This document shows, one piece after another, positions 9,678-39,297 of a DNA stretch of 45,437 nt. The DNA comes from a virus. Each line of letters opens with the position of its first letter. Position 1 is the first letter of the stretch. The notes beneath the pieces are model-generated. The model was not told the DNA's origin. It made no database searches and worked only from the letters and a program-made list of their open reading frames with translations. The stretch spans positions 1-45,437 of IMG/VR virus record IMGVR_UViG_3300036846_000965, one strand, 5' to 3'. The position numbers and the translations under genes are program-made.

Positions 9678-9830
9678 ATGCCGAAACAGAACTCAGAAGC
9701 TCCACGTGTGCTTACCGGCTACCGCTGCGATCACTGCCATGAGCGGCCAGGCGTCAGGTTTTTTGACCGGCTATGGCTCTGCGTCGAATGCGTCTTTGAC
9801 CGCGATCGGCGCTTGAGGACGTTTCGATGA
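9678..9830 (+). CDS. 50-aa zinc-ribbon-like protein
   Basis: ATG with AGGA eight bases upstream; the reading frame ends in an ATGA overlap with the exonuclease gene. Two CxxC knuckles (C17-C20 and C35-C38) 15 residues apart suggest a single zinc ribbon. It is translationally coupled to the recombination exonuclease, so it may act in the same early function. No specific family recognised. Confidence 0.65.
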   Translation: MPKQNSEAPRVLTGYRCDHCHERPGVRFFDRLWLCVECVFDRDRRLRTFR

Positions 9831-10837
9831 GCGGGCGCGGCTTGCGCATCGGCGGCTCGGAGATCGCCGCCATCCTGGGCGAGGACGAGCGCAAGGATGC
9901 GTTTTCCCTGTGGATGGATAAGAAGTCGGGCATCGCGCAGCAACTCCCATCAATACGGATGCGCCTGGGCCTCGCGGTGCAGAAGTTCATCATCGAAATC
10001 TATTCGGAGGAAACGGGCAACGCCGCGGACTGGTACGACGAGCGCATCAATCATCCGACCCGCGCCTATATGGCCTCGACGCCCGATGCGCTCTGCCGCG
10101 AGATCCGGCGCGGCGTCGATGCGAAAAATATCAGCTTCGATCAGCGCAACAAGTGGGGCGGCGGCCCCAACGAAATCCCGCGCTCGGTGCAGCTGCAGGC
10201 CTGGTGGTATATGTCGGCGCTCGACTATTCGAGTTGGGACATCGCGGCGTTCGTCAACACGCGCGATCTGAACGTTTATACGATCGAGCGTCCCGGCGCG
10301 CGCGCCGAAGCGTTCATGCTCGAGCGGGCCGAAGAATTTTACCAGCGCTTCCTTATTGGCGACGAGCGCCCGGATCCGGGCTTCTCCGAAGCCTCGACGC
10401 GCTACATGAAGCAGCTTTATCCGCGCAACACCGCGCCTCCGCGCACCGCGACGACCGATGAAATCCACCTGCTGCGCCGCTACGCCGTGACGCGCCAAGC
10501 CTACAGCGTGCTCGAGAAGGAAAAGGATCTGCTTGAAAACCTGCTGCGCGATGCGGTGCGCGAGTGTGACGCCATCGAGATCGCCCGCGCCGACGCCTTG
10601 GACGGCTGGCTTGCGCGGTTTTCCTGGAAGGTGCCAACGAAAGAAACGCCAAAGACCGATTGGCGCGAGCTCGCCGATTCGCTGATGACCTGCCTCACTC
10701 CGGGCGAAAAGCAAAAACTGATCGCCCAATATACACGCACCGAACCCGGATCGCGGCGGATTCACTTCCGCGGCGATCCGGTTGAAGGCCTGCTGGTGGC
10801 TACCCCCCATGTCCAATCTATCGATGACGGAGTTTGA
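9827..10837 (+). CDS. YqaJ-family recombination exonuclease
   Basis: A 336-aa member of the YqaJ/lambda-exonuclease group of PD-(D/E)xK nucleases, which resect double-strand DNA ends to give tails for an annealing protein. The N-terminus has the family signature RIGGSEIAAILG (residues 7-18). The active site can be followed: TPD at 85-87, DAK at 98-100 in place of the more usual ExK, and SVQLQ at 120-124 matching the Gln-rich third motif. The C-terminal third is an extra helical region of unknown role. The RecT-like protein encoded 240 bases downstream is its expected partner. Start is fixed by the ATGA overlap with the upstream zinc protein. Confidence 0.85.
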   Translation: MSGRGLRIGGSEIAAILGEDERKDAFSLWMDKKSGIAQQLPSIRMRLGLAVQKFIIEIYSEETGNAADWYDERINHPTRAYMASTPDALCREIRRGVDAKNISFDQRNKWGGGPNEIPRSVQLQAWWYMSALDYSSWDIAAFVNTRDLNVYTIERPGARAEAFMLERAEEFYQRFLIGDERPDPGFSEASTRYMKQLYPRNTAPPRTATTDEIHLLRRYAVTRQAYSVLEKEKDLLENLLRDAVRECDAIEIARADALDGWLARFSWKVPTKETPKTDWRELADSLMTCLTPGEKQKLIAQYTRTEPGSRRIHFRGDPVEGLLVATPHVQSIDDGV

Positions 10838-13044: not shown

Positions 13045-13752
13045 ATGCAACCAATGCTTTGCTTGATTATCCCGCTGGGCGGCGGCGGCCCGGTTGATCC
13101 GGGCTTCGGCGTTCCTGGATGGCCCGCGCATCCGATCGCTCCGGGTGGCCCGCCTCCGGTTGTCGGCGGCGGCCCGATCTACCCCGGCGCGACACCAACG
13201 CCACCCATCTATTACCCGCCTGGGATTTGGCCGTCGCCCGGTCATCCGGCGCACCCCATCGCGCCCGGCGGGCCGCCGTATCCCGTCGATCCAGGCTTCG
13301 GAGTTCCCGGATGGCCAGCGCACCCGATCGCTCCAGGCGGCCCACCTCCGGTTGTCGGCGGCGGCCCGATCTACCCCGGCGCGACACCAACGCCGCCGAT
13401 CTACTACCCGCCGGTCGGAGTCATGCCGCCAATCTTTTATCCGCCGTATCCGTCGACCGGACCCGGATTTCCAACCCACCCGATCGCGCCCGGTGGACCG
13501 CCTCCCGGCATCTGGGGCGGCGCTCCGATTCCCGGCTATCCGGCGCATCCGATCGCTCCGGGCGGACCGCCTTCCTTCGGCCATCCCGAGCATCCGATCA
13601 ACGAGCCGCCGACCGGCGGCGCGAATTGGGTACTGGTATTCATTCCTGGAGTGGGATGGGTTTGGGCCATTGTTCCCGGCGCTGGCGGCGCTCCCGAACC
13701 GCCTGATGAAGGCGATAAGCCGCAGGTGGATCCGCGCGATAAACGCGATTAA
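13045..13752 (+). CDS. Pro/Gly-rich repeat protein with HPIAPGGPP motifs (235 aa)
   Basis: ATG follows TTGGAGAA. The protein is built of degenerate repeats centred on (A/T)HPIAPGGPP, seen five times, separated by IYYPP-type segments. Such Pro/Gly/aromatic repeats give an extended, non-globular chain. The C-terminal part breaks the pattern with NWVLVFIPGVGWVWAIVPG, a hydrophobic beta-like module, then an acidic tail. Proteins of this style recur in environmental phages without known function. A virion decoration, adhesive or membrane-contact role is possible but is only a guess. The gene contains an internal 129-bp duplication. Confidence 0.7.
   Translation: MQPMLCLIIPLGGGGPVDPGFGVPGWPAHPIAPGGPPPVVGGGPIYPGATPTPPIYYPPGIWPSPGHPAHPIAPGGPPYPVDPGFGVPGWPAHPIAPGGPPPVVGGGPIYPGATPTPPIYYPPVGVMPPIFYPPYPSTGPGFPTHPIAPGGPPPGIWGGAPIPGYPAHPIAPGGPPSFGHPEHPINEPPTGGANWVLVFIPGVGWVWAIVPGAGGAPEPPDEGDKPQVDPRDKRD
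13093..13221 (+). repeat. 129-bp direct repeat inside the HPIAPGGPP gene, copy 1
   Basis: Encodes 43 residues from VDPGFGVPGW to IYYPP that recur identically from 13285. Nucleotides differ at scattered, mainly third-codon, positions. Confidence 0.85.
13285..13413 (+). repeat. 129-bp direct repeat inside the HPIAPGGPP gene, copy 2
   Basis: Second copy of the 43-residue block at 13093-13221; the peptide is identical over the whole block, so the copies are either recent or held by selection on the protein. Confidence 0.85.
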
Positions 13753-14078: not shown

Positions 14079-14663
14079 ATGAATTGGCAGCTATCCTATC
14101 GCGCGGATCCGATTGCTCGACAAATCGCGGACCGCCACTATAACCGGCAGAAAATCGGCCACCCCCAATTTGTTCCTCCGGGGCGCTGCCTGGTGCTCCT
14201 GGGAATCGATGGAGTCTCGCTGTGGGTGACGTCGTGGCCGTTTGCCGAGCATGTCAAGCACGATTGGGCCGGTGCATGGATAAACTCCTGCTTTCGCCGA
14301 GAGAGCGGCCCGGTGGCGAGCGATCTCATCCGTGAAGCGCTGGCTGCCACCGCCTCATTCTGGACGGACGCGCCACGCATCGGCTGTAAACACTGCGGAG
14401 AAACCGTGTGCATGGTGACGTTCATCGACGCGAGCAAGGTCAAACGCAAGCGCGATCCAGGCCGCTGTTATATCAAAGCCGGTTTCCGCCGCTGCACGGC
14501 GACGACGCAGGGCGGCTTAGTTGTCGTTCATATTGGCCCGGAAAATATGCCGCAGAAAATGGCGGCTCAAGTTTGGCAGACGCGATTTGAATTTCTGTTT
14601 AACGAAAAGTCTCACGCGGAGAGAGGAAGCGGTGCGGCAGGTTCCACCCATTATCGATCCTGA
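14079..14663 (+). CDS. Mom/GNAT-like protein, possible DNA-base modification enzyme (194 aa)
   Basis: ATG at 14079 with GGA nearby; an upstream TTG in frame is less likely. The sequence carries a pattern reminiscent of phage Mu Mom and related GNAT-fold proteins: ADRHYNRQ (residues 21-28), PPGRCLVLLG, then INSCFRRESG with SDLIREAL, and TFIDASKVKRKRDPG leading to YIKAGF near the end. Mom modifies adenine in DNA to block restriction. Two Cys pairs (CKHCG and RRC) add a possible metal site. The gene directly precedes three DNA-modification or nuclease genes, which fits a role in modifying phage DNA. The relation is judged by eye and needs a profile search. Confidence 0.5.
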   Translation: MNWQLSYRADPIARQIADRHYNRQKIGHPQFVPPGRCLVLLGIDGVSLWVTSWPFAEHVKHDWAGAWINSCFRRESGPVASDLIREALAATASFWTDAPRIGCKHCGETVCMVTFIDASKVKRKRDPGRCYIKAGFRRCTATTQGGLVVVHIGPENMPQKMAAQVWQTRFEFLFNEKSHAERGSGAAGSTHYRS

Positions 14664-15783
14664 GTTTCAGCGGCTGATTCCGCCGCTCGAGGCGAGCGAG
14701 CTCTGGCAGCTCGAAGAAAATATCCGCGCGCACGGATGCCGCGATCCGTTGGTCCTCTGGCACGGAATTTTACTCGACGGTCACAACCGGCTGCGCATCT
14801 GCCTCGCGCACAAACTCCCCTACACGACAGTCGAAATCCTGTTGCCGAGCCGCGATCACGCGCTGCTGTGGATGGAACTGAATCAGCTTGGCCGGCGCAA
14901 TCTGAAGGACGATCAGCGAGGGGCGATCGGTTTCCGCGTGGAAAAACGCCTGGTGGCGATCGCCAAACTCGAGCAGCGCCGCGCAGCGGGAAAGCGAGGC
15001 GGACGCGGGAAGAAGAAAAGCGGGGCGACCGCTGTGGTCGCCCCGCTAAAGCTCCGCACCGTGCGAATCGTCACCAAGGTCGCCAAGAAAGCCGGTGTAT
15101 CGGAGCGGAAACTTCGCACAGTGCGCGAGATCGCAAAGAAGCGGGGCGAGGAAGCCGTCGACCAAATCGCCGCGGGCGAAAAGACGATCGCTGAAATCAA
15201 GACTGAAATCCGCCGCGCCGAACGCGCCGAAAAACTCGCGCTCATCGCAGCGGTCTCTCAGGAATTGCCCGACCGCAAGTTCGCCATCCTCTACGCGGAT
15301 CCGCCGTGGCGCTATGAATTCTCCGACGAAGCGCGGGCCATCGAAAACCAATATCCGACACTCACGCTCGAGGAGCTTTCAAAGAAGCCGATTCAGGACG
15401 TCGCGCTCGACGACGCGCTGCTCTTCCTGTGGGCCACCAGCCCCAAGCTCGAAGAGGCGATCGAACTGGCGAAGGCCTGGGGCTTCACCTACCGGACCAG
15501 CATGGTGTGGGTGAAAGACCAGATCGGCATGGGCTACTACGCGCGGCAGCAACACGAGCTCCTGCTGATTTGCAAGCGCGGCGAACTGCCCGCGCCGGAT
15601 CCGTTCCTGCGTCCGTCCTCGGTCATCAACGCGCCGCGCCTCGAGCACAGCGCCAAGCCTCCGGTGGTGCGCGAAATCATCGACCGCATGTATCCCGGCA
15701 TAGAGAAGCTCGAACTGTTCGCCCGCGGCCCGCTGCCCGCTGGCTGGAGCGGTTGGGGCAACCAGGCGGAGGCCGCGCCGTGA
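14632..15783 (+). CDS. ParB-domain / MT-A70 adenine methyltransferase fusion (383 aa)
   Basis: GTG start at 14632 with AGAGGAAG six bases upstream; it overlaps the previous gene by 32 bases. Residues about 15-100 form a ParB-like nuclease/DNA-binding domain with LLDGHNRLRI (47-56). A basic linker (RGGRGKKKSG) and a ParB-type helix-turn-helix region (VAKKAGVSERKLRTVREI) follow. The C-terminal half is an MT-A70 methylase with DPPW at 223-226, then FLWATSP and WVKDQIGMGYYAR. It is expected to methylate adenine N6 in DNA. The stop overlaps the next methylase start (GTGA), so the pair is translationally coupled. A strong hairpin lies in the linker-coding DNA. Confidence 0.85.
   Translation: MRQVPPIIDPEFQRLIPPLEASELWQLEENIRAHGCRDPLVLWHGILLDGHNRLRICLAHKLPYTTVEILLPSRDHALLWMELNQLGRRNLKDDQRGAIGFRVEKRLVAIAKLEQRRAAGKRGGRGKKKSGATAVVAPLKLRTVRIVTKVAKKAGVSERKLRTVREIAKKRGEEAVDQIAAGEKTIAEIKTEIRRAERAEKLALIAAVSQELPDRKFAILYADPPWRYEFSDEARAIENQYPTLTLEELSKKPIQDVALDDALLFLWATSPKLEEAIELAKAWGFTYRTSMVWVKDQIGMGYYARQQHELLLICKRGELPAPDPFLRPSSVINAPRLEHSAKPPVVREIIDRMYPGIEKLELFARGPLPAGWSGWGNQAEAAP
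15019..15047. other. 12-base perfect hairpin inside the ParB-methylase gene
   Basis: AGCGGGGCGACC and GGTCGCCCCGCT flank a GCTGT loop. It sits in the part encoding the linker between the ParB domain and helix-turn-helix. Read on the minus strand it is followed by a T-rich run, so it resembles a leftward terminator, though no leftward gene is nearby. Confidence 0.6.
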
Positions 15784-16790
15784 GCGGGGATCTCGTAACG
15801 GTTGCTCCGTCGGCGGAGTTGTTGAGCCGCGCTCGCTCTCTGCTTGCGAAAGCGACCATGCTCGGCGAAGTGCTCAAAATTCGCAATTTTGCAGGAGCGG
15901 CAGAAAAGTATTTTCGTGCAGCCGGGCACTCGCGCGAAGTGGCGAAGGAAGCCGCCGAAATACGGCTGCGGGCCGAGCGCAAAGCGGGTGAAATTCTCGA
16001 CCAGATGAAGCAGCGCGGCGAACGGGCGGGCAAGGGCCGACCGGAAAATAAATGTGACGCCGCGTCACATTTAACCCTTCCCGATCTCGGCGTGCACAAG
16101 AAGCAGGCGTCCCGCTGGCAGCAGATCGCGGCGGTTCCGGCACCGGTTTTCGAGAACTACATTGAGGAACGGAACAAGCGCGATCTTGACGAGCTAACGA
16201 CGTCGGGCTTGATGACCATCGCGAAGTTTAACGGCAAACACGCCAAGGGCGATGAGCTTCGCAAAGCGCCGCCGCCGTTACCTACTGGGCCTTTCGGCGT
16301 CGTCGTTGCCGATCCTCCGTGGCCTTACAGCGAGCGGCGACCGACCAACGATTCACGCGGCTACCCTGCTTACAGCGGTATGAGCTTAGAGGAAATCGAA
16401 GCACTGCCGGTCGCTAGAATCGCAAATGACGACGCGGTGTTGTGGTTGTGGACCACCAACGCTTTTTTGGAACCGGCGTTTCGCGTGGCGCGGGCGTGGG
16501 GATTCGACTACCGCACGCTGCTTACTTGGGCCAAAAATAAAATCGGGTTGGGGGATTGGCTGCGCGGCCAAACTGAGCATTGCCTAATGTGCAGCCGGGG
16601 ACGTCCGGTGATTACGCTCACCGCCCAATCGACGCTGCTCACTGCGCCGGTGGGCGAACACTCGCGAAAGCCGGATGAGTTTTATTCGCTGGTCGAACAG
16701 GTGTGTCCAACGCCGCACTTCGGACGGGTCGAATTGTTTTCACGAGAGCCGCGAGCGGGATGGCGAGCATGGGGCGCGGAAGCAAGATGA
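15780..16790 (+). CDS. MT-A70 family adenine methyltransferase (336 aa)
   Basis: GTG start overlaps the stop of the upstream methylase. Residues about 10-75 are a helical domain (LKIRNFAGAAEKYFRA, then EIRLRAERKAGEIL) common as a separate phage protein or methylase N-terminus. A region resembling LPDLGVHKKQASRWQQIA acts as a helix-turn-helix. The catalytic domain has DPPW at 178-181, WLWTTNAFL, and WAKNKIGLGDWLRGQTEHCL. It is expected to make N6-methyladenine. The two MT-A70 proteins share domain plan but differ in the N-terminus, so they are probably not a recent duplication. A 25-bp perfect palindrome lies within the gene. Confidence 0.85.
   Translation: MSGDLVTVAPSAELLSRARSLLAKATMLGEVLKIRNFAGAAEKYFRAAGHSREVAKEAAEIRLRAERKAGEILDQMKQRGERAGKGRPENKCDAASHLTLPDLGVHKKQASRWQQIAAVPAPVFENYIEERNKRDLDELTTSGLMTIAKFNGKHAKGDELRKAPPPLPTGPFGVVVADPPWPYSERRPTNDSRGYPAYSGMSLEEIEALPVARIANDDAVLWLWTTNAFLEPAFRVARAWGFDYRTLLTWAKNKIGLGDWLRGQTEHCLMCSRGRPVITLTAQSTLLTAPVGEHSRKPDEFYSLVEQVCPTPHFGRVELFSREPRAGWRAWGAEAR
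16049..16073. repeat. 25-bp perfect palindrome inside the second methylase gene
   Basis: TAAATGTGACGC and GCGTCACATTTA are separated by one base. It falls in the DNA encoding the linker between the helical domain and the helix-turn-helix. It is more AT-rich than its surroundings. It could be an operator, a recombination target or a hairpin in the mRNA. Confidence 0.7.
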
Positions 16791-17392
16791 AACGCCCTTT
16801 CGATCAAGCGACAATACTCGGTCAGATCGGGGAAAACACAGTCTGCCGGATGCTCCGCGACGCGGATTTTAGCGTCGAGCGAAATTGCGATGGCTTGCCC
16901 CGCGATGGGCGCGGACCATCCGTGGCCGTGCCAGGAAAAGAGCCAATTCCACGCCCCGATCTTGTTGTGTCCAACCGCGGCGTTTCGATTCCAGCCGAGG
17001 TCAAGACAAAAACGGATCGGACCAAAGGCATCTTAACGAAGGAATGGGAGACAGGCATCGACCATAAACGGTGGATCGACTACCGCGATTTCGAGCGGGC
17101 AACAGGACAGCAGATGGTGCTCGTTATCGTCGAATACTCCAAGACGGTCGCTCAGTGGTTGCTCGCTAACGAGCGTATCAACAGCGACTTCGAACGGAAT
17201 GGCCGCACGGATTTTGTACAGGCACCTGACCACGTGATGGCGCAATGGCTCGCGAGCCTCAACCCAAGTTTGAACAAGCCAACATTTTGCTATGGGAAGT
17301 CGATGGTCTATTTCGCGGTGCGCCAATTTCGCAACGATTGGCTCGAATTTTTAGCATCCATAGTGAGCCAGCGGGCGACCAGATTTACATGA
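16787..17392 (+). CDS. PD-(D/E)xK-type nuclease candidate (201 aa)
   Basis: ATG at 16787 overlaps the methylase stop (ATGA). The N-terminus GQIGENTVCRMLRDADF (12-28) matches the first helix of Mrr/resolvase-like nucleases, with Glu16 in the usual place. PD at 57-58 and EVK at 71-73 complete a PD-X-ExK active site. The rest is mixed alpha/beta with a Trp-rich C-terminus. Directly coupled to two adenine methylases, it could be the restriction partner of a phage-borne modification system, or a nuclease used in phage DNA metabolism. Catalytic residues look intact. Confidence 0.65.
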   Translation: MKRPFDQATILGQIGENTVCRMLRDADFSVERNCDGLPRDGRGPSVAVPGKEPIPRPDLVVSNRGVSIPAEVKTKTDRTKGILTKEWETGIDHKRWIDYRDFERATGQQMVLVIVEYSKTVAQWLLANERINSDFERNGRTDFVQAPDHVMAQWLASLNPSLNKPTFCYGKSMVYFAVRQFRNDWLEFLASIVSQRATRFT

Positions 17393-18139: not shown

Positions 18140-18309
18140 GTGAAGAAATCAAAATCGCGTTTATCCAAATCGGCAGCGATACTCTCGCCGCGCTCGAACG
18201 GCGGCGGCAGCAGTGCGAAGCCGAATACGAATCTCCGGCAACCTACGACGATGCGATTTGCGCTTTGGTCGTCGATTACTACAACCCGGATGTGTTTGGT
18301 GGTCGATGA
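18136..18309 (+). CDS. Hypothetical small protein (57 aa)
   Basis: ATGA overlap with the previous gene, and overlapped by the next by 20 bases. Acidic, helical, with no recognisable motif. Part of the run leading to the integrase. Confidence 0.5.
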   Translation: MSEEIKIAFIQIGSDTLAALERRRQQCEAEYESPATYDDAICALVVDYYNPDVFGGR

Positions 18310-18505
18310 ACTCTTGACCGCCCGCGACGTCGCCAAGCGCTTGAAGGTGAGTGTCGGATGGGTGTTCGCGCACGCCGAAGGACGGCGGCGGCCACAACTG
18401 CCGAGCCTGAAGCTCGGCAAATCGGTGCGCTTCCGCAACGAGGATATCGAGGAGTTTTTAGAGCGCTGCCGCCGGCAGATGGCCAACGGGAGGCCGCTAC
18501 AATGA
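18290..18505 (+). CDS. Excisionase-like helix-turn-helix protein (71 aa)
   Basis: A winged helix-turn-helix of the MerR/excisionase class: LLTARDVAKRLKVSVGWVFAHA forms the helix pair, PSLKLGKSVRFRNEDIEEFL the wing and final helix. Proteins of this type bind attachment DNA and direct excision, or regulate integrase. Two genes upstream of the integrase and near attP, an excisionase role is likely. ATG at 18290 is the best start in frame. Confidence 0.7.
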   Translation: MCLVVDELLTARDVAKRLKVSVGWVFAHAEGRRRPQLPSLKLGKSVRFRNEDIEEFLERCRRQMANGRPLQ

Positions 18506-18544
18506 AGCGCCCGTTCTGTGGCTCCAGTCATATATGCTCAGGGA

Positions 18545-18736
18545 ATGACAAAAAACCTAGCAAGGCAATTCGAGGCGCTTCGGCTGAAGTGCCTCCGTTG
18601 CGATCACACCTGGATGCCCACATCGGCCGAGGGGCCAAAGCAATGCCCCCGGTGCCATTCGCCCTATTGGGACCGACCGCGCACCAAGGGGCCGAAGTTC
18701 GTAAAACCCGCTGCCCGAAAGAAGGCGGCCAAATGA
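18545..18736 (+). CDS. Zinc-ribbon protein (63 aa)
   Basis: ATG preceded by AGGG. LKCLRCDHTW and, 13 residues on, CPRCHSPYWDRPR form a classic four-Cys zinc ribbon; the YWDRPR ending is typical of small nucleic-acid-binding ribbons in phages and archaea. It ends in an ATGA overlap with the integrase gene. The integrase frame is also open across this gene back to 18502, but the ribbon is the better reading. Confidence 0.7.
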   Translation: MTKNLARQFEALRLKCLRCDHTWMPTSAEGPKQCPRCHSPYWDRPRTKGPKFVKPAARKKAAK

Positions 18737-20022
18737 CCGATCTCAACCTGGCCGAATATAACAACGCCCACCGCACGCGCGAGCGCCGCGAAAACGGCAG
18801 CGTGAAACTCGTTGGCGCGCGAGAGAAGAAATGGGAAGGCAGCTATCACGTCTATCTCGACGGCAAGCGCAGTATGCGCCGCCGCATTATCGGGACCAAG
18901 GCGGAGATTCCCACCAAAACCGCAGCCCAGGAATTGCATCGGACCTGGCTGCGCCGGCAAGCATCGCAATCCGTTGCCACCACGAGCGGCGCTTCCGTCG
19001 CCGCGCTGTGCGACGACTACCTGACGCTCAAGAAGGGCGATTGGGAAGTGTTCACGCACCGGACCATGTGCTCGATTTTTAACAGCATCATCAAGCCTGC
19101 GATCGGCGCGAGGCCGATTGACAAGGTGACGCCCGACGAGTTGAAGCATTTCATCAGCGCCCTCCCCGATCGCAAGTACACGACGCCCGGCGGCTGGAAG
19201 CGCGTCGATCGCAAACTGGTGAAAGTTCCGGGGAAAGTCAAAACGGGAATCAGCGCCCAATACGTTCAGAAGATCGTCACGCATTTACGCGCGGTTTTCG
19301 ACCTGGCCGCCGAGCGCGACCTGATCGCCAAGAACCCGACGCGCTCGATCATGGTGAGATTGCGAACGCCTAAGCAGGCCCGCAAAACAACGAAAGAGGT
19401 TTTCGCGCCGCAGTATTTGAAGCCGCTCCTCGAGCAGTTAAAGGCGCGTGATGCGCTCATTGTGTGGATATCGATTCTAGGCGCGACTCGCCCGAACGAA
19501 CTGTTCGCGATTCGCGGCGCGGACGTGGGGCCGACGTGGATCCGGATTCAGCGGGCGCTCGACCGCTGGCGCAATGTCAAGGAAACCAAAACCGGCAAGG
19601 GCCGCGTAATCCATCTGCCGCCGCTCGTCGCCGAAGAGCTTCGGGACTGGATGCGCCACGCGAAGGTCGGGCCGACTGATCTGGTTTTTCAAAACAAGGA
19701 CGGCGGCGCTGTCGACCGGAAGAATTTCCTCAACCGCAAATTGCGGCCCGCGGCGGTACGCGCCGGGATCCCCGTCACCAACGTCGATTTCAGAATGCTG
19801 CGGCGCAGTTTCGCCACCCTGGCGCTGATGATAGGCTTCGACGTCAAGTCGATTCAGTCGCAACTCGGACATGCGCGGCCCGATATGACGCTCACCGAAT
19901 ACTCGCAAGCGGTCGACGCGCACACGGCGGAACACATGGTGAAACTTGAAGAAATACTACGCGGCAGCGCCCCGCTGTCGATAGACGCCAGCGCGAAATT
20001 GGGCGGGGGGTTAATCCAATGA
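18733..20022 (+). CDS. int: Tyrosine-recombinase integrase (429 aa)
   Basis: ATG at 18733 overlaps the previous stop. Residues about 20-60 are the arm-site-binding domain, 85-200 the core-binding SAM-like domain (LCDDYLTLKKGDW, LRAVFDLAAERDLI), and 220-405 the catalytic domain. Catalytic residues visible are Arg253 (GATRPNE), Lys286 or Lys289, Arg357, His380 (LGH) and the nucleophile Tyr390 (LTEYSQ). Where most family members have His in the HxxR box, this one reads RMLR, so Arg354 stands in that place. The gene ends two bases before the first attachment arm site. It should integrate phage DNA into the tRNA-Val gene whose 3' half lies downstream. Confidence 0.93.
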   Translation: MTDLNLAEYNNAHRTRERRENGSVKLVGAREKKWEGSYHVYLDGKRSMRRRIIGTKAEIPTKTAAQELHRTWLRRQASQSVATTSGASVAALCDDYLTLKKGDWEVFTHRTMCSIFNSIIKPAIGARPIDKVTPDELKHFISALPDRKYTTPGGWKRVDRKLVKVPGKVKTGISAQYVQKIVTHLRAVFDLAAERDLIAKNPTRSIMVRLRTPKQARKTTKEVFAPQYLKPLLEQLKARDALIVWISILGATRPNELFAIRGADVGPTWIRIQRALDRWRNVKETKTGKGRVIHLPPLVAEELRDWMRHAKVGPTDLVFQNKDGGAVDRKNFLNRKLRPAAVRAGIPVTNVDFRMLRRSFATLALMIGFDVKSIQSQLGHARPDMTLTEYSQAVDAHTAEHMVKLEEILRGSAPLSIDASAKLGGGLIQ

Positions 20023-20344: not shown

Positions 20345-20680
20345 ATGATTTGCCCGGCGTGTCACCGCGCGATCCCCGAGGGGGAACTGACATGCCGGGT
20401 GTGTCTTATGCGGCGCAGCCTCGACGCCGCGATCGAGGCGCAGCGCTCGTTCCTTCCCGCCGTAATCGACGATCGCCTGCTATTGAATACCAGGCGCGGC
20501 CAGGGCGACCGGCAGAAGCATCTGGCGCTCTACAATCACCCCGACCTGGGATTTTGCGGCGCGGCGCTCGTGGGCTCCCGCGAGTCGCTCTACTTCAGCC
20601 GCTCTGACGGCTTCAAACTCTGCCAGTCATGCCGCGAAGTTCTGGACTCGCTGCTCTCGCGGCCGGTAGAAGGCGAATGA
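20345..20680 (+). CDS. Zinc-finger protein following attP (111 aa)
   Basis: MICPACHRAI opens a CxxC...CxxC ribbon (C3, C6, C17, C20); a further CQSC lies near residue 93. No strong ribosome site precedes the ATG. It begins the replication-region operon and ends in an ATGA overlap with a nuclease gene. The middle is a basic helical domain. DNA or RNA binding is likely, function unknown. Confidence 0.65.
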   Translation: MICPACHRAIPEGELTCRVCLMRRSLDAAIEAQRSFLPAVIDDRLLLNTRRGQGDRQKHLALYNHPDLGFCGAALVGSRESLYFSRSDGFKLCQSCREVLDSLLSRPVEGE

Positions 20681-21054
20681 CGGGCGGCTTCAAACTACGT
20701 CCGGATGAACCCTCAGAAAACGATATCGAAGCTACCTGCTGCGACCTGCTCGAGCGGCGCGGCTACTTTCCGGTGCGCGTCCATTGCGGACGCTTTCGCA
20801 CCCCCGACTGCAAGCGCTGGCTGACTGGCAACCCCACAGGAACGCCCGATTGGCTGGCCGTCCATGCGACGTTCCGGCCTTTTTTCATGGAAGTCAAACG
20901 ACCGGGCGAGAAACCATCCGCGGCGCAGCGCACGCGCATTCACCAGCTGCGCCACGGGCTGCGCCTCGCCGTTGCCGTGGTCTCGAGCCGCGAGGCGCTA
21001 TTTGCCTGGTTGAACGCTTTTGAAGGGGATCAGAGGAAAGGGGCCGGGCGGTGA
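20677..21054 (+). CDS. VRR-NUC domain nuclease (125 aa)
   Basis: ATGA-coupled to the previous gene. A single-domain VRR-NUC protein, a PD-(D/E)xK group with structure-specific or resolvase-like activity on branched DNA. GTPDWLAV (55-62) provides Asp58, FFMEVKRPG (69-77) provides Glu72 and Lys74, and SAAQ (81-84) provides the conserved Gln. Family proteins occur widely in phages, near replication genes as here. It may resolve recombination or replication intermediates. Confidence 0.85.
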   Translation: MTGGFKLRPDEPSENDIEATCCDLLERRGYFPVRVHCGRFRTPDCKRWLTGNPTGTPDWLAVHATFRPFFMEVKRPGEKPSAAQRTRIHQLRHGLRLAVAVVSSREALFAWLNAFEGDQRKGAGR

Positions 21055-35384: not shown

Positions 35385-36743
35385 ATGGCTTCATCACTTC
35401 CGCGAGCAATGGCGTCCCGGATCGAGATGTGGCCGCTTGACCGGCTCAAACCTTACGAGCGAAACGCCCGAACGCACTCCAAAGACCAGATCGAGCAGAT
35501 CGCCGCGTCCATGATTGAGTTTGGGTTTACGGTCCCGATTCTGGTTGCGGAGGACGGCGGCATTCTGGCAGGTCACGGCCGATTAGATGCCGCTCGGCTG
35601 CTTGGCCTGCCGGAAGTCCCGGTGATCCCCCTCGACCACCTGACCGAGGTCCAGCGCCGCGCTTACGTCCTCGCCGATAACAAGCTGGCGGAGAACGCCG
35701 GTTGGGACGATACGCTGCTGCGCGAGGAGCTCGAGGCGCTGGCCAACGAGAATTTCGACCTGGAGATCACCGGTTTCAGCGCGAAGGAGATCGAGGAGCT
35801 TCTTGACGAATCGGGCGATGTGATGGACGGGGAGACAGACCCCGATGAAGCGCCGCCGCCGCCTGAAAACCCCATCTCGCGATCTGGCGATCTGTGGCTG
35901 CTCGGCAATCACCGGCTTGTTGTGGGCGATTGCCGCGAGCGCGTGCTGGTGACGAAGCTCATGGGCCGCGAGAAAGCGGACCTGATCCTCACGGATCCGC
36001 CGTACAACGTCAACTACGTCGATTCGCACAACGTTGACGCGCGCAAACGGGCGGGCCTGGGCAGCAAGAACAGGGAAGCGGACCACGATCACATCGAATC
36101 GGACGCTCAAACACCCGAGCAATACCGCGAATTCCTGGACGCTGTGCTGCCGATCCATGCCGGCGCATTGAAGAAGGACGGCTCGTTTTACATTTTCTAC
36201 TCGATGAGTTTCCAGCACGTGTGGGAAGAGGCGCTCGAGGCCGCTGGTTTCGAGATCCGCTGCCATATCATCTGGGCGAAAAACCACTTCATCCTGACCT
36301 ACAACCGCTACAAACAGCAGCATGAGTCGGTCTTATATTGCCATCGCAAGGGCGAGGTCGACGTGTGGTACGGCGACAAAACCCAATCGACCGTTTGGGC
36401 GGAGAAGCGGCCCGCGGCTTCGCGCGAGCATCCGACGATGAAGCCGGTCGAGTTGCTGGAGCGCCCGATCGTCAATTCGACGCGGCGCGGCGACAAAGTT
36501 CTAGATTTGTTCGGCGGATCCGGCTCGACTATGATCGCCTGCGAGCGGCTTGGACGCCACGCGCGCATGGCGGAAATCTCGCCGGTCTACGCCGATGTGA
36601 TTTTGAGGCGCTGGAACGCATTCACGCACAAGCTCCCGGTGCTCGCCGAGACCGGGGAATCGCTGTTAGAAGTGGAGCGCCAGCGGGTGGTAGGAAAAAA
36701 GAAGGCCGCTGCCAGTGAAACTGCTGCAGCGGCCTTAATCTGA
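35385..36743 (+). CDS. ParB-domain / DNA methyltransferase fusion (452 aa)
   Basis: ATG at 35385; ATG nine codons in is possible. Residues 14-110 are a ParB-like domain with GGILAGHGRLDAARLLG (58-74). The C-terminal domain is a beta-class N4-cytosine/N6-adenine methylase: TDPPYNVNY (DPPY 204-207) comes before the cofactor motif DLFGGSGST (FGGSG from 376). Such fusions are frequent just before phage terminase genes and are thought to protect or mark phage DNA. It is the third DNA methylase of the window and of a different class from the two MT-A70 proteins. Confidence 0.88.
   Translation: MASSLPRAMASRIEMWPLDRLKPYERNARTHSKDQIEQIAASMIEFGFTVPILVAEDGGILAGHGRLDAARLLGLPEVPVIPLDHLTEVQRRAYVLADNKLAENAGWDDTLLREELEALANENFDLEITGFSAKEIEELLDESGDVMDGETDPDEAPPPPENPISRSGDLWLLGNHRLVVGDCRERVLVTKLMGREKADLILTDPPYNVNYVDSHNVDARKRAGLGSKNREADHDHIESDAQTPEQYREFLDAVLPIHAGALKKDGSFYIFYSMSFQHVWEEALEAAGFEIRCHIIWAKNHFILTYNRYKQQHESVLYCHRKGEVDVWYGDKTQSTVWAEKRPAASREHPTMKPVELLERPIVNSTRRGDKVLDLFGGSGSTMIACERLGRHARMAEISPVYADVILRRWNAFTHKLPVLAETGESLLEVERQRVVGKKKAAASETAAAALI
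36702..36736. other. Perfect 11-base hairpin at the end of the methylase gene
   Basis: AAGGCCGCTGC (36702-36712) pairs with GCAGCGGCCTT (36726-36736), five bases before the stop codon. Rightward it has no T-run; leftward the complement reads into six T, so it would terminate antisense transcription. Confidence 0.6.
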
Positions 36744-36799: not shown

Positions 36800-37369
36800 A
36801 TGTTCGCGAGCATCAACGAATACGCGCGGCACCGCGGCTGCGACAAAAAGGCCGTTCAGTACGCCATCCAGCGCGGGCGCATAAAGCGCGAGCCCGACGG
36901 CTCCATCAATGTCGAGCAGGCCGACATCGATTGGGAGCGCAACACCAATCACGCCCAAGCCCGCTACGGTCACCGGACAAAGAAAGCGCAAGGCGCGGTC
37001 CAAAGCGGGCGCACCAGGCAGCGCAAGTACGCCGAGCGCACCGCGGCGACCGCGGCGCAGCAGCTAGGCGATCCCGCGCGCGGCGCTCAGGCGCTCTCTT
37101 TCGCCAACGCCAGGGCGGCGCGTGAAATCTACGAGGCCAAGCTCAAAAAGATCGATCTCGAGGAACGCCAGGGAATGCTGCTGCCGAAGGCCCGCGTTCA
37201 GATCGAGGTCAACAACCAGTTCCGGATACTGCGCGACGGGATGCTGAACATCCCCAACCGCCTCGCGGCGCAGCTGGCGGCCGAGTCCGATCCGACGATG
37301 GTTCACGACCTGATCGAAGAAGAGATGCGCAACGTCCTCAACGACTTTAACGTGGGCAAACTCCGATGA
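36800..37369 (+). CDS. Terminase small subunit (Nu1-like, 189 aa)
   Basis: N-terminal winged helix-turn-helix (INEYARHRGCDKKAVQYAIQRGRIKREPDGSI, residues 5-37) of the type that recognises the packaging site, followed by a charged helical region (AREIYEAKLKKIDLEERQGMLL) and a C-terminal helix. This domain order is that of lambda Nu1-like small terminases. It directly precedes the large terminase with an ATGA overlap. Confidence 0.8.
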   Translation: MFASINEYARHRGCDKKAVQYAIQRGRIKREPDGSINVEQADIDWERNTNHAQARYGHRTKKAQGAVQSGRTRQRKYAERTAATAAQQLGDPARGAQALSFANARAAREIYEAKLKKIDLEERQGMLLPKARVQIEVNNQFRILRDGMLNIPNRLAAQLAAESDPTMVHDLIEEEMRNVLNDFNVGKLR

Positions 37370-39297
37370 ATCCCTCGCTTGAGTCTGGCTACACGGTCGA
37401 CGTCGCGGCGATCATCGCCGAGGCGGCCCGATCGGGCGCGCGGCCCGAAGCGAATCTGCTGGTGAGCGAGTGGGCCGATCAGCACCGCATTTTGACAACG
37501 CGATCCTCATCGGAGCCGGGGCCGTGGCGCACCTCGCGCACTCCGTACCTCAAAGAGCCGATGGATTGCCTGTCGACCAAGGATCGCACCGAGATGGTGG
37601 TGCTCATGACCGGATCGCAGGTGGGCAAAACCGAAACGGGCAACAATTGGATCGGCTTTGTCATCGACCAGGCGCCGGGGCCGATGCTGGCGGTCCAGCC
37701 GACGACGGAGATGGCCAAGCGCAATTCGAAGCAGCGCGTCGCCACGCTGATCGAAGAATCGCCAGCGCTGCGGGCGAAGGTGAAGGAATCGCGATCGCGC
37801 GATGCGGGAAACACCATCCTGGCTAAGGAATTTCCCGGCGGCATCCTGGTCATGGTCGGGGCCAACAGCGCCAAAGGCCTGCGCTCCATGCCCGCTCGGT
37901 ACCTATTTTTGGATGAGGTGGACGGCTACCCGGGCGATGTAGAAGGCGAGGGCGAGCCGTGCGAACTGGCGATCGCCCGTACCAGCACCTTTTCGGGGCG
38001 CTCGAAAGTCTTGATCACATCAACCCCGGTTGTTTCCGGGCGCTCGCGCGTTGAGGCCTTCTTTGAGAAGAGCGATCAGTGTTTCTATTACGTGCCGTGC
38101 CCGTTCTGTATCGAGATGCAGACGCTGCGGCTTGAAAACCTCCGCTGGCCCAAGCGCGATCCCGCCGCGGCGCACTACGTTTGCGAGGCGTGCGGCAAGT
38201 CGATCCCCAATCACGCGAAAAACTGGATGCTGCCGCGCGGCGAATGGCGGGCGAGCGCGCTCGCCGAGGGGCGCATACGCGGGTTTCATCTCTCGAGCCT
38301 GTACTCGCCCGTAGGCTGGCTCTCCTGGGGGCAGATCGCGGCCAAGCACGAGGCGGCCATCGACGATCCTACGAAGCTGCAAGTTTTCTGGAACACCGTT
38401 TTGGGCCTGCCGTGGAGCGATCGCGGCGAAGTTCCCGAATCGGATCGCCTGTACGAGCGCCGCGAGAATTACCCGATCGGCCTCGTTCCCTACGGCGGCC
38501 TGGCGCTTACCGCCGGGGCCGACGTCCAGCCGCGGCGCATCGAGGTGGAGGTCGTCGCCTGGGGCCGCGCCAAGCAATCCTGGTCGGTCGATTACCGGGT
38601 GCTCGAGGGCGACACCTCGCAGCCGGCAGTTTGGGACAAGTTGGGCGCGATGCTCGAAGAGGATTTTCCGACCGTCTACGGGCAGCCGGTTCGCATCCTG
38701 CGCTTGGCGGTCGACACCGCGTTCAACACCACGGCGGCCTATGAGTTCGTGCGCAAGATGAACACGGCGCGGGTCATGGGGATCAAGGGCGATTCCCGCG
38801 CGTCCGCTTTCGTCCAGCAGCCGTCGTTTGTCGAAGTGGGGCCGCAGGGCCAGCGCCTGAAGCACGGCGTTCGCCTCTGGTCGCTCAATGTGGGGATCGG
38901 CAAAGAGACGCTGTACCGCTGGCTGCGCTCGAGTGTGCCCGATGTTTCGATGGGCGAGGCCTGGCCGGTGGGCTTCTGCCACTTCCCGGAGTACTCGAAG
39001 GAGTATTTCGAGCAGCTGACCGCCGAGCAGCTGGTCACCAAAACGGGCAAGAACGGCTACCGGAAAACCGAATGGCAGAAGCGCCGCGACCGCAACGAGG
39101 CGCTCGACGTGCGGATTTACGCAATGGCCGCGGCCAACTCGCTGCGCACCGAGATTTGGAGCGCGGAGAAATGGGACGACATTGAAGCGCAGTTGACGCT
39201 CGAGAAAGCGCCGCCGCTCCCACCGGCGCAACGGGGCCAGCCGATTGGCCCGCCTCCCAAGTTCAAATCGTTCGGCCCGAAACAGGAGATCGACTAA
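37366..39297 (+). CDS. terL: Terminase large subunit, GpA family (643 aa)
   Basis: Packaging motor and endonuclease. ATPase domain with Walker A GSQVGKTE (83-90) and Walker B YLFLDEVD (179-186). A zinc site of paired Cys (245, 248, 273, 276) sits between ATPase and nuclease domains, as in lambda gpA. The nuclease domain begins near ALTAGADVQPRRIEVEV. Length is normal for the family. GpA-type terminases usually cut at cos sites, so this phage probably has cohesive ends, although no cos was identified here. Confidence 0.95.
   Translation: MNPSLESGYTVDVAAIIAEAARSGARPEANLLVSEWADQHRILTTRSSSEPGPWRTSRTPYLKEPMDCLSTKDRTEMVVLMTGSQVGKTETGNNWIGFVIDQAPGPMLAVQPTTEMAKRNSKQRVATLIEESPALRAKVKESRSRDAGNTILAKEFPGGILVMVGANSAKGLRSMPARYLFLDEVDGYPGDVEGEGEPCELAIARTSTFSGRSKVLITSTPVVSGRSRVEAFFEKSDQCFYYVPCPFCIEMQTLRLENLRWPKRDPAAAHYVCEACGKSIPNHAKNWMLPRGEWRASALAEGRIRGFHLSSLYSPVGWLSWGQIAAKHEAAIDDPTKLQVFWNTVLGLPWSDRGEVPESDRLYERRENYPIGLVPYGGLALTAGADVQPRRIEVEVVAWGRAKQSWSVDYRVLEGDTSQPAVWDKLGAMLEEDFPTVYGQPVRILRLAVDTAFNTTAAYEFVRKMNTARVMGIKGDSRASAFVQQPSFVEVGPQGQRLKHGVRLWSLNVGIGKETLYRWLRSSVPDVSMGEAWPVGFCHFPEYSKEYFEQLTAEQLVTKTGKNGYRKTEWQKRRDRNEALDVRIYAMAAANSLRTEIWSAEKWDDIEAQLTLEKAPPLPPAQRGQPIGPPPKFKSFGPKQEID

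What the first reader, a model, noticed from the sequence alone, without database searches (positions are those of the whole stretch)
14632..17392. Coupled methylase-methylase-nuclease cassette
A ParB-MT-A70 fusion, a second MT-A70 and a protein with GxxGE, PD and EVK motifs overlap by GTGA and ATGA. Two DNA adenine methylases coupled to a probable PD-(D/E)xK nuclease is the gene content of a restriction-modification-like system, carried between the recombination and integration modules. MT-A70 methylases paired this way with such a nuclease are not a system I can name.
Basis: partly seen in the sequence, partly recalled or inferred. Interest (0 to 1): 0.7.

Follow-up and report, generated by a model that had tools for sequence, protein, structure and literature searches.

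The report
Phage methylase paired with DNA nuclease
A virus of bacteria carries a gene for an enzyme that chemically marks DNA, locked to a gene for a DNA-cutting enzyme of a family that no database searched here names; the same lock-step pairing recurs in dozens of other environmental viruses, which suggests an overlooked way for viruses to tell their own DNA from other DNA and destroy the rest.

Summary
Three overlapping genes (14632-15783, 15780-16790, 16787-17392) encode two MT-A70 methylases and a 201-aa protein that no Pfam, PHROGs, PADLOC or NCBIfam model recognises. That protein is a PD-(D/E)xK nuclease: AlphaFold pLDDT 91, nearest solved structures are Hjc Holliday-junction resolvases, and the residues E16, D58, E71 and K73 are conserved in a family I assembled. 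The family lives in uncultivated viral contigs; I found none in 50,697 cultured-phage records.

The conserved unit is a pair, not the trio: one adenine methylase directly followed by the nuclease. Searching with the nuclease alone, 25 of 25 assessable non-seed loci of the main branches had an adenine methylase immediately upstream. In a divergent branch it was 16 of 25. The partner is either MT-A70 or the unrelated Dam (PF05869), with at least 8 swaps on the tree. Nucleases diverge faster than their methylases. The tandem second methylase occurs only in this window.

Best reading: a phage-borne, Type II-like restriction-modification module that translates protection before cleavage. Function, recognition site and cognate methylation are inferred, not shown. 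The main rival is a Holliday-junction or replication nuclease. New variant of a known kind.

The parts
14079..14663 (+). First gene of the overlapping cluster (about 194 aa, phrog_24928, unknown function); may or may not belong to the module
   Evidence: PHROG match E=1e-39; its 3' end overlaps the next gene by 32 bases; AlphaFold model too poor to use
14632..15783 (+). ParB-like domain + MT-A70 adenine methylase, DPPW motif intact; extra methylase found in tandem only in this window
   Evidence: Pfam MT-A70 4e-24, phrog_21315 7e-70 and ParB-like phrog_12047 1e-4; tandem count
15780..16790 (+). HTH-like N-terminal domain + MT-A70 adenine methylase; conserved partner of the nuclease
   Evidence: Pfam MT-A70 1e-28; 58% identical to the L005 methylase, which also precedes a homologue of the nuclease
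16787..17392 (+). PD-(D/E)xK nuclease of an unnamed family; catalytic E16, D58, E71, K73
   Evidence: No Pfam/PHROGs/PADLOC/NCBIfam match; family alignment; AlphaFold pLDDT 91.4, pTM 0.87; Foldseek PDB top hits Hjc, E=1.5e-5
15780..15783 (+). GTGA stop/start overlap, methylase 1 to methylase 2
   Evidence: sequence
16787..16790 (+). ATGA stop/start overlap, methylase 2 to nuclease
   Evidence: sequence

Best explanation
A phage-borne Type II-like restriction-modification module. The methylase (N-terminal ParB/HTH DNA-reading domain plus MT-A70 catalytic domain) marks adenines in a target sequence on phage DNA. The nuclease, translated from the same message through an ATGA overlap so that methylase is made with or before it, cuts DNA that lacks the mark: competing phage DNA, or host DNA if expressed only in lytic growth. 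Shown here: fold, conserved catalytic residues, and near-obligatory adjacency to an adenine methylase. Inferred: DNA as substrate, a shared recognition site, protection by methylation, and the biological target.
For: 1) Fold and active site: AlphaFold pLDDT 91.4; Foldseek to PD-(D/E)xK enzymes at E=1.5e-5; D58, E/D71 and K73 kept in 53 of 54 nuclease homologues and E16 in 51. 2) Linkage found by searching with the nuclease only: adenine methylase directly upstream in 15/15 assessable viral and 3/3 genome non-seed loci and in 7/7 more; 16/25 in the divergent branch. Only 2 of 52 window genes are MT-A70/Dam, so chance cannot explain it. 3) Partner exchange: MT-A70 and the unrelated Dam (PF05869) swap at least 8 times on the nuclease tree, 4 forced by well-supported branches counting the Dam label, even between nucleases 65-68% identical; position and overlap stay. 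4) Asymmetry: methylases occur without the nuclease (many of the 80 loci). All 46 coupled methylases whose motif lies on the contig are intact, and the one nuclease that has lost D58, E71 and K73 (L050) still has an intact methylase. 5) Nucleases diverge faster than their methylases: methylase identity 70-85%, nuclease median 41%. 6) Precedent: MunI-type methylases are MT-A70 relatives linked to restriction enzymes (PMC2630997); chloroviruses keep methylase and restriction genes adjacent (PMC7019647).
Against: Nearest solved structures are Holliday-junction resolvases, not restriction enzymes. In the divergent branch, 9 of 25 loci lack an MT-A70/Dam neighbour and sit among replication genes. 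Complete R-M systems are reported as nearly absent from phages (9 in 831 genomes, PMC4176335). The window cluster lies with lytic genes between recombination and integration functions. Repeated swapping of unrelated methylases requires that they share a site, which is untested. An MT-A70 of an E. coli prophage prefers rRNA (PMC10810198).
Confidence: 0.5

Rival explanations
1. The nuclease is a phage Holliday-junction resolvase or replication/recombination nuclease of the Hjc type. The methylase next to it is an orphan that shields phage DNA from host restriction, and the pair is kept together because both act on replicating phage DNA.
For: Top 27 PDB fold matches are Hjc/Hje resolvases, and a weak profile match is to Hjc (E=0.019). 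The window carries RecE-like and VRR-NUC genes nearby. In the divergent branch solitary copies sit by SSB, DnaB-like and replication-initiation genes. RusA, a true resolvase, occupies the slot after MT-A70 in L102, L105, L106 and L111 (sequence by eye).
Against: A resolvase needs no methylase, yet 25 of 25 main-branch loci have one directly upstream, of two unrelated kinds. Four records carry a RusA over the family cut-off besides this nuclease, a fifth has a sub-threshold match, and two viral records have a VRR-NUC over cut-off. Hjc is the smallest PD-(D/E)xK core, so it is the default fold neighbour for the whole superfamily (established knowledge).
Confidence: 0.27
2. The nuclease is a MutH-like enzyme that nicks hemi-methylated or unmethylated sites during replication or packaging, with the methylase setting the strand or timing mark.
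For: Adenine methylase always the partner; Dam-type and at least one characterised phage MT-A70 both methylate GATC (PMC7556043), the MutH/Sau3AI site; partner exchange fits a common site.
Against: No MutH among the listed fold matches; no MutS/MutL genes were noted near the window cluster (not searched for systematically).
Confidence: 0.08
3. Host takeover rather than exclusion: the nuclease digests unmodified host DNA in lytic growth while methylated phage DNA survives, as proposed for chlorovirus restriction enzymes.
For: Cluster is co-oriented with recombination and other lytic genes; in chloroviruses the packaged restriction enzymes degrade host DNA and do not cause virus exclusion (PMC7019647).
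Against: A methylase made in the same cell would also protect the host chromosome unless the nuclease acts first; no evidence that the nuclease is packaged.
Confidence: 0.1

Closest known systems
MunI-type Type II restriction-modification systems (MT-A70-like beta-class methylase plus restriction enzyme)
   Same: Adenine methylase of the MT-A70 superfamily beside a nuclease gene; PD-(D/E)xK active site in the nuclease here
   Different: No sequence match of protein 3 to any solved restriction enzyme. Here the methylase carries an N-terminal ParB/HTH domain, genes overlap methylase-first, it is carried by phages, and MT-A70 is interchangeable with Dam
Chlorovirus restriction-modification systems (PMC7019647)
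   Same: Virus-encoded methylase and nuclease genes adjacent
   Different: Eukaryotic giant viruses with other enzyme families; biochemically proven there, only inferred here
Archaeal Holliday-junction resolvase Hjc
   Same: Fold and active-site layout (alignment pairs E, PD and E-x-K)
   Different: 165-205 aa with an extra C-terminal part versus about 130 aa; 15% identity; tied to a methylase gene
ParB-CTPase fold fused to methyltransferases in prophages (PMC12704722)
   Same: The same kind of ParB-methylase fusion as gene 1 and many partner methylases
   Different: The passages retrieved from that survey describe no nuclease partner and guess at anti-defence; MT-A70 fusions were stressed there for archaea
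STEC prophage MT-A70 enzyme with accessory subunit PNB-2 (PMC10810198)
   Same: Phage MT-A70 acting with a neighbouring gene product
   Different: Partner is an upstream winged-HTH protein, not a nuclease; substrate is 16S rRNA

Membership tests
PD-(D/E)xK nuclease superfamily | Core fold | tested here: met
   AlphaFold pLDDT 91.4, pTM 0.87; Foldseek E=1.5e-5 to Hjc
PD-(D/E)xK nuclease superfamily | Catalytic D ... (D/E)xK plus helix Glu | tested here: met
   D58, E/D71 and K73 in 53/54; E16 in 51/54
PD-(D/E)xK nuclease superfamily | Nuclease activity | not testable with these tools
   needs purified protein
Type II restriction-modification system | DNA methylase gene adjacent to nuclease gene, conserved across genomes | tested here: met
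   48 of 54 non-redundant loci directly coupled, plus L056 with an HNH gene between
Type II restriction-modification system | Methylase and nuclease recognise the same site; methylation blocks cleavage | not testable with these tools
   no biochemical data
Type II restriction-modification system | Nuclease not kept without a methylase | tested here: inconclusive
   True in main branches (25/25 non-seed); 9/25 non-seed in the divergent branch lack a direct MT-A70/Dam neighbour, though L139 has an N6_N4 methylase next to the nuclease and L137 and L142 carry one elsewhere in the contig
Hjc Holliday-junction resolvase | Hjc fold and active-site residues | tested here: met
Hjc Holliday-junction resolvase | Detectable sequence homology to Hjc | tested here: inconclusive
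   profile E=0.019; no Pfam match in 20 members
Hjc Holliday-junction resolvase | Structure-specific cleavage of four-way junctions | not testable with these tools
   needs biochemistry
MT-A70 methylase | PF05063 domain with DPPW motif | tested here: met
MT-A70 methylase | DNA (rather than RNA) adenine as substrate | not testable with these tools
   phage members act on DNA (PMC7556043) or rRNA (PMC10810198)
PADLOC-described defence systems | Match of the nuclease to any model | tested here: not met
   methylases match Type II methylase models, nuclease none

The most novel reading that the evidence does not exclude
A modular viral self/non-self system built from three exchangeable parts: an N-terminal ParB/HTH domain that reads DNA (and in the ParB form may bind a nucleotide), either of two unrelated adenine-methylase domains, and a dedicated PD-(D/E)xK nuclease. 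Specificity would sit in the shared N-terminal domain, so that the methylase chemistry can be swapped without losing protection. N-terminal domains are shared across MT-A70 and Dam partners (67 cross matches).
Probability: 0.2. Interest if true: 0.82.

Novelty: new variant of a known kind. Interest (0 to 1): 0.62.

Why it matters
Complete restriction-modification systems are held to be nearly absent from phages, while solitary phage methylases are common and usually explained as shields against host restriction (PMC4176335). A nuclease family invisible to Pfam, PHROGs and PADLOC, sitting right behind such methylases in uncultivated viruses, suggests that some of these 'orphan' methylases are not orphans. 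If confirmed, it gives temperate phages their own restriction weapon, adds a new nuclease family, and makes the long-open role of phage methylases testable. The repeated exchange of MT-A70 for Dam beside the same nuclease is a strong prediction that both mark the same site.

Tried and rejected
Direct look-ups of protein 3 failed: Pfam, PHROGs, PADLOC, NCBIfam, PDB sequences, 50,697 phages, 72,556 plasmids, and pattern scans of IMG/VR and GTDB. Relatives appeared only after reading the genes beside related methylases. The full alignment A1 was too diverse for scanning; closer subsets worked. Two random class samples (385 genomes each, same drawn members) held only the centre genome: the family is rare outside viral sequence. 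The three-gene 'trio' as a unit was rejected. Other small downstream proteins with PD-(D/E)xK-looking motifs after other MT-A70 genes (L002/L004, L003/L090, L008/L058, L012, L047, L067) are not detectably related to this nuclease (for two of them), so I make no claim for them beyond the motif. AlphaFold of the first gene of the cluster was too poor (pLDDT 44) and was not searched. RNA folding after the nuclease showed nothing (z=-0.5). An accession-level look at four cultured phages with related MT-A70 showed no homologous nuclease directly downstream.

Full report
The window (one IMG/VR viral contig, 45 kb) holds three overlapping + strand genes at 14632-15783, 15780-16790 and 16787-17392, joined by GTGA and ATGA. 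The first two are MT-A70 methylases with intact DPPW motifs. The first has a ParB-like N-terminal region (phrog_12047, E=1e-4). The contig is that of a temperate tailed phage: RecE-like exonuclease at 9827-10837, excisionase-like gene at 18140-18505 and integrase in the ORF 18358-20022, gpA-type terminase at 37366-39297, portal, S49 protease and major head protein.

Protein 3 matched nothing in Pfam, PHROGs, PADLOC, NCBIfam, PDB sequences, phages or plasmids. I therefore looked at what follows related MT-A70 genes in viral contigs. L005 encodes a 46% identical protein directly after a 58% identical methylase, and L007 and L010 encode more distant homologues in the same place. L006 and L009 joined on alignment. 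In the 20-row alignment E16, P57, D58, E71, K73 and K75 are invariant. Extended to 54 non-redundant members, D58, E/D71 and K73 are kept in 53 and E16 in 51. The one exception, L050, has lost D58, E71 and K73 together.

AlphaFold with the family alignment gives pLDDT 91.4 and pTM 0.87. Foldseek against the PDB returns the Hjc/Hje Holliday-junction resolvases as the first 27 hits (best E=1.5e-5, TM 0.70 on the target), then I-Ssp6803I, RecU and HincII. A profile search of PDB sequences also places Hjc first, weakly (E=0.019), with the catalytic residues aligned. Protein 3 therefore has a PD-(D/E)xK nuclease fold. Activity and substrate are not shown.

Linkage was tested by searching with the nuclease alone. 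Scan A2 gave 16 non-seed viral loci, of which 15 have enough upstream sequence: all 15 have an adenine methylase ending within about 30 bases of the nuclease start. Three of three bacterial MAG contigs do too. Scan A8 gave 7 of 7 non-seed loci. Some of these loci are near-duplicates; the non-redundant count below corrects for that. Scan A7, of a divergent branch (profile-profile probability 97.8%), gave 16 of 25 non-seed loci. Of the nine exceptions, L139 has an N6_N4 methylase next to the nuclease and L137 and L142 carry one elsewhere in the contig; the rest show no MT-A70, Dam or N6_N4 methylase on their fragmentary contigs (the MT-A70 search had no positive control). For scale, 2 of 52 window genes are MT-A70/Dam.

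The partner is not fixed. In 14 of 54 non-redundant loci it is the unrelated Dam family PF05869, in the same place. On the nuclease tree the coupled loci need at least 8 MT-A70/Dam exchanges; well-supported branches alone force 4 changes of the Dam label. Nucleases 65-68% identical can have different partner classes (L028/L052, L018/L007). N-terminal domains are shared between MT-A70 and Dam partners (67 cross matches). The module thus looks like three exchangeable parts: N-terminal domain, methylase domain, nuclease.

Other features fit restriction-modification logic. Methylases are found without the nuclease, but in the main branches I did not find the reverse. All 46 coupled methylases whose motif lies on the contig are intact. 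Nucleases diverge faster than methylases. The overlap order gives methylase before nuclease. My leading explanation, at 0.5, is a phage-borne Type II-like restriction-modification module.

The main rival is a resolvase or replication nuclease. It is favoured by the fold neighbours, by the solitary members of the divergent branch near replication genes, and by RusA occupying the same slot in L102, L105, L106 and L111 (recognised by eye). It is weakened by the methylase coupling and by four records that carry a RusA over cut-off besides this nuclease. The MutH-like and host-degradation readings are less likely. The methylase substrate itself is uncertain: phage MT-A70 enzymes are known that act on DNA (GATC, PMC7556043) and on rRNA (PMC10810198).

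On novelty: R-M systems were reported as nearly absent from phages (9 in 831 genomes, PMC4176335). Chloroviruses are the known viral case (PMC7019647), and HHPV4I of an archaeal virus is a reported virus-derived modification-dependent nuclease (PMC10101028). Full-text searches joining MT-A70, phage, restriction-modification and ParB returned no paper, and the six papers were listed, three of them read in part, without a description of this pair. The library holds only open-licence papers, so an earlier description may exist elsewhere. I file it as a new variant of a known kind, with a nuclease family not named in the libraries searched.

Noticed in passing
window 14079-14663: Gene overlapping the first methylase gene (phrog_24928, unknown). 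By eye its TFVD/KV...AGF pattern recalls the phage Mu Mom DNA-modification protein; this is a recollection, not a test. Homologues in L004 and L054 and in Micromonospora phage pMLP1 and Salinibacter phages.
   Followed up: partly
window 35385-36743: Third ParB-methylase fusion of the phage: ParB_N plus N6_N4_Mtase (PF01555, E=3e-34), just before the terminase genes.
   Followed up: no
window 20629-21054: VRR-NUC-like nuclease (phrog_93, 3e-12), a second candidate recombination nuclease in the same phage.
   Followed up: partly
window 13045-13752: Pro/Gly-rich open frame with repeats of GWPAHPIAPGGPP, open on both strands; coding status unclear.
   Followed up: no
L056:3500-4093: An HNH endonuclease-like gene sits between the MT-A70 gene and the nuclease, possibly a homing insertion into the cassette.
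   Followed up: no
L102, L105, L106, L111: A RusA-like gene (recognised by eye) directly follows MT-A70 where other contigs have the nuclease.
   Followed up: no
L002:7122-7550, L003:1631-2275, L004:6729-7133, L008:4469-4891, L012:6528-7043, L047, L058, L067, L090: Other small proteins right after MT-A70 genes, with D...(D/E)xK-looking motifs but no detectable relation to the window nuclease; MT-A70 genes may pair with several nuclease families.
   Followed up: partly
L050:1735-2373: Nuclease homologue that has lost D58, E71 and K73 while its methylase is intact.
   Followed up: partly
L139:3995-4462: Solitary-branch nuclease followed 3 bases later by an N6_N4 methylase gene, a third methylase class beside this nuclease.
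   Followed up: no
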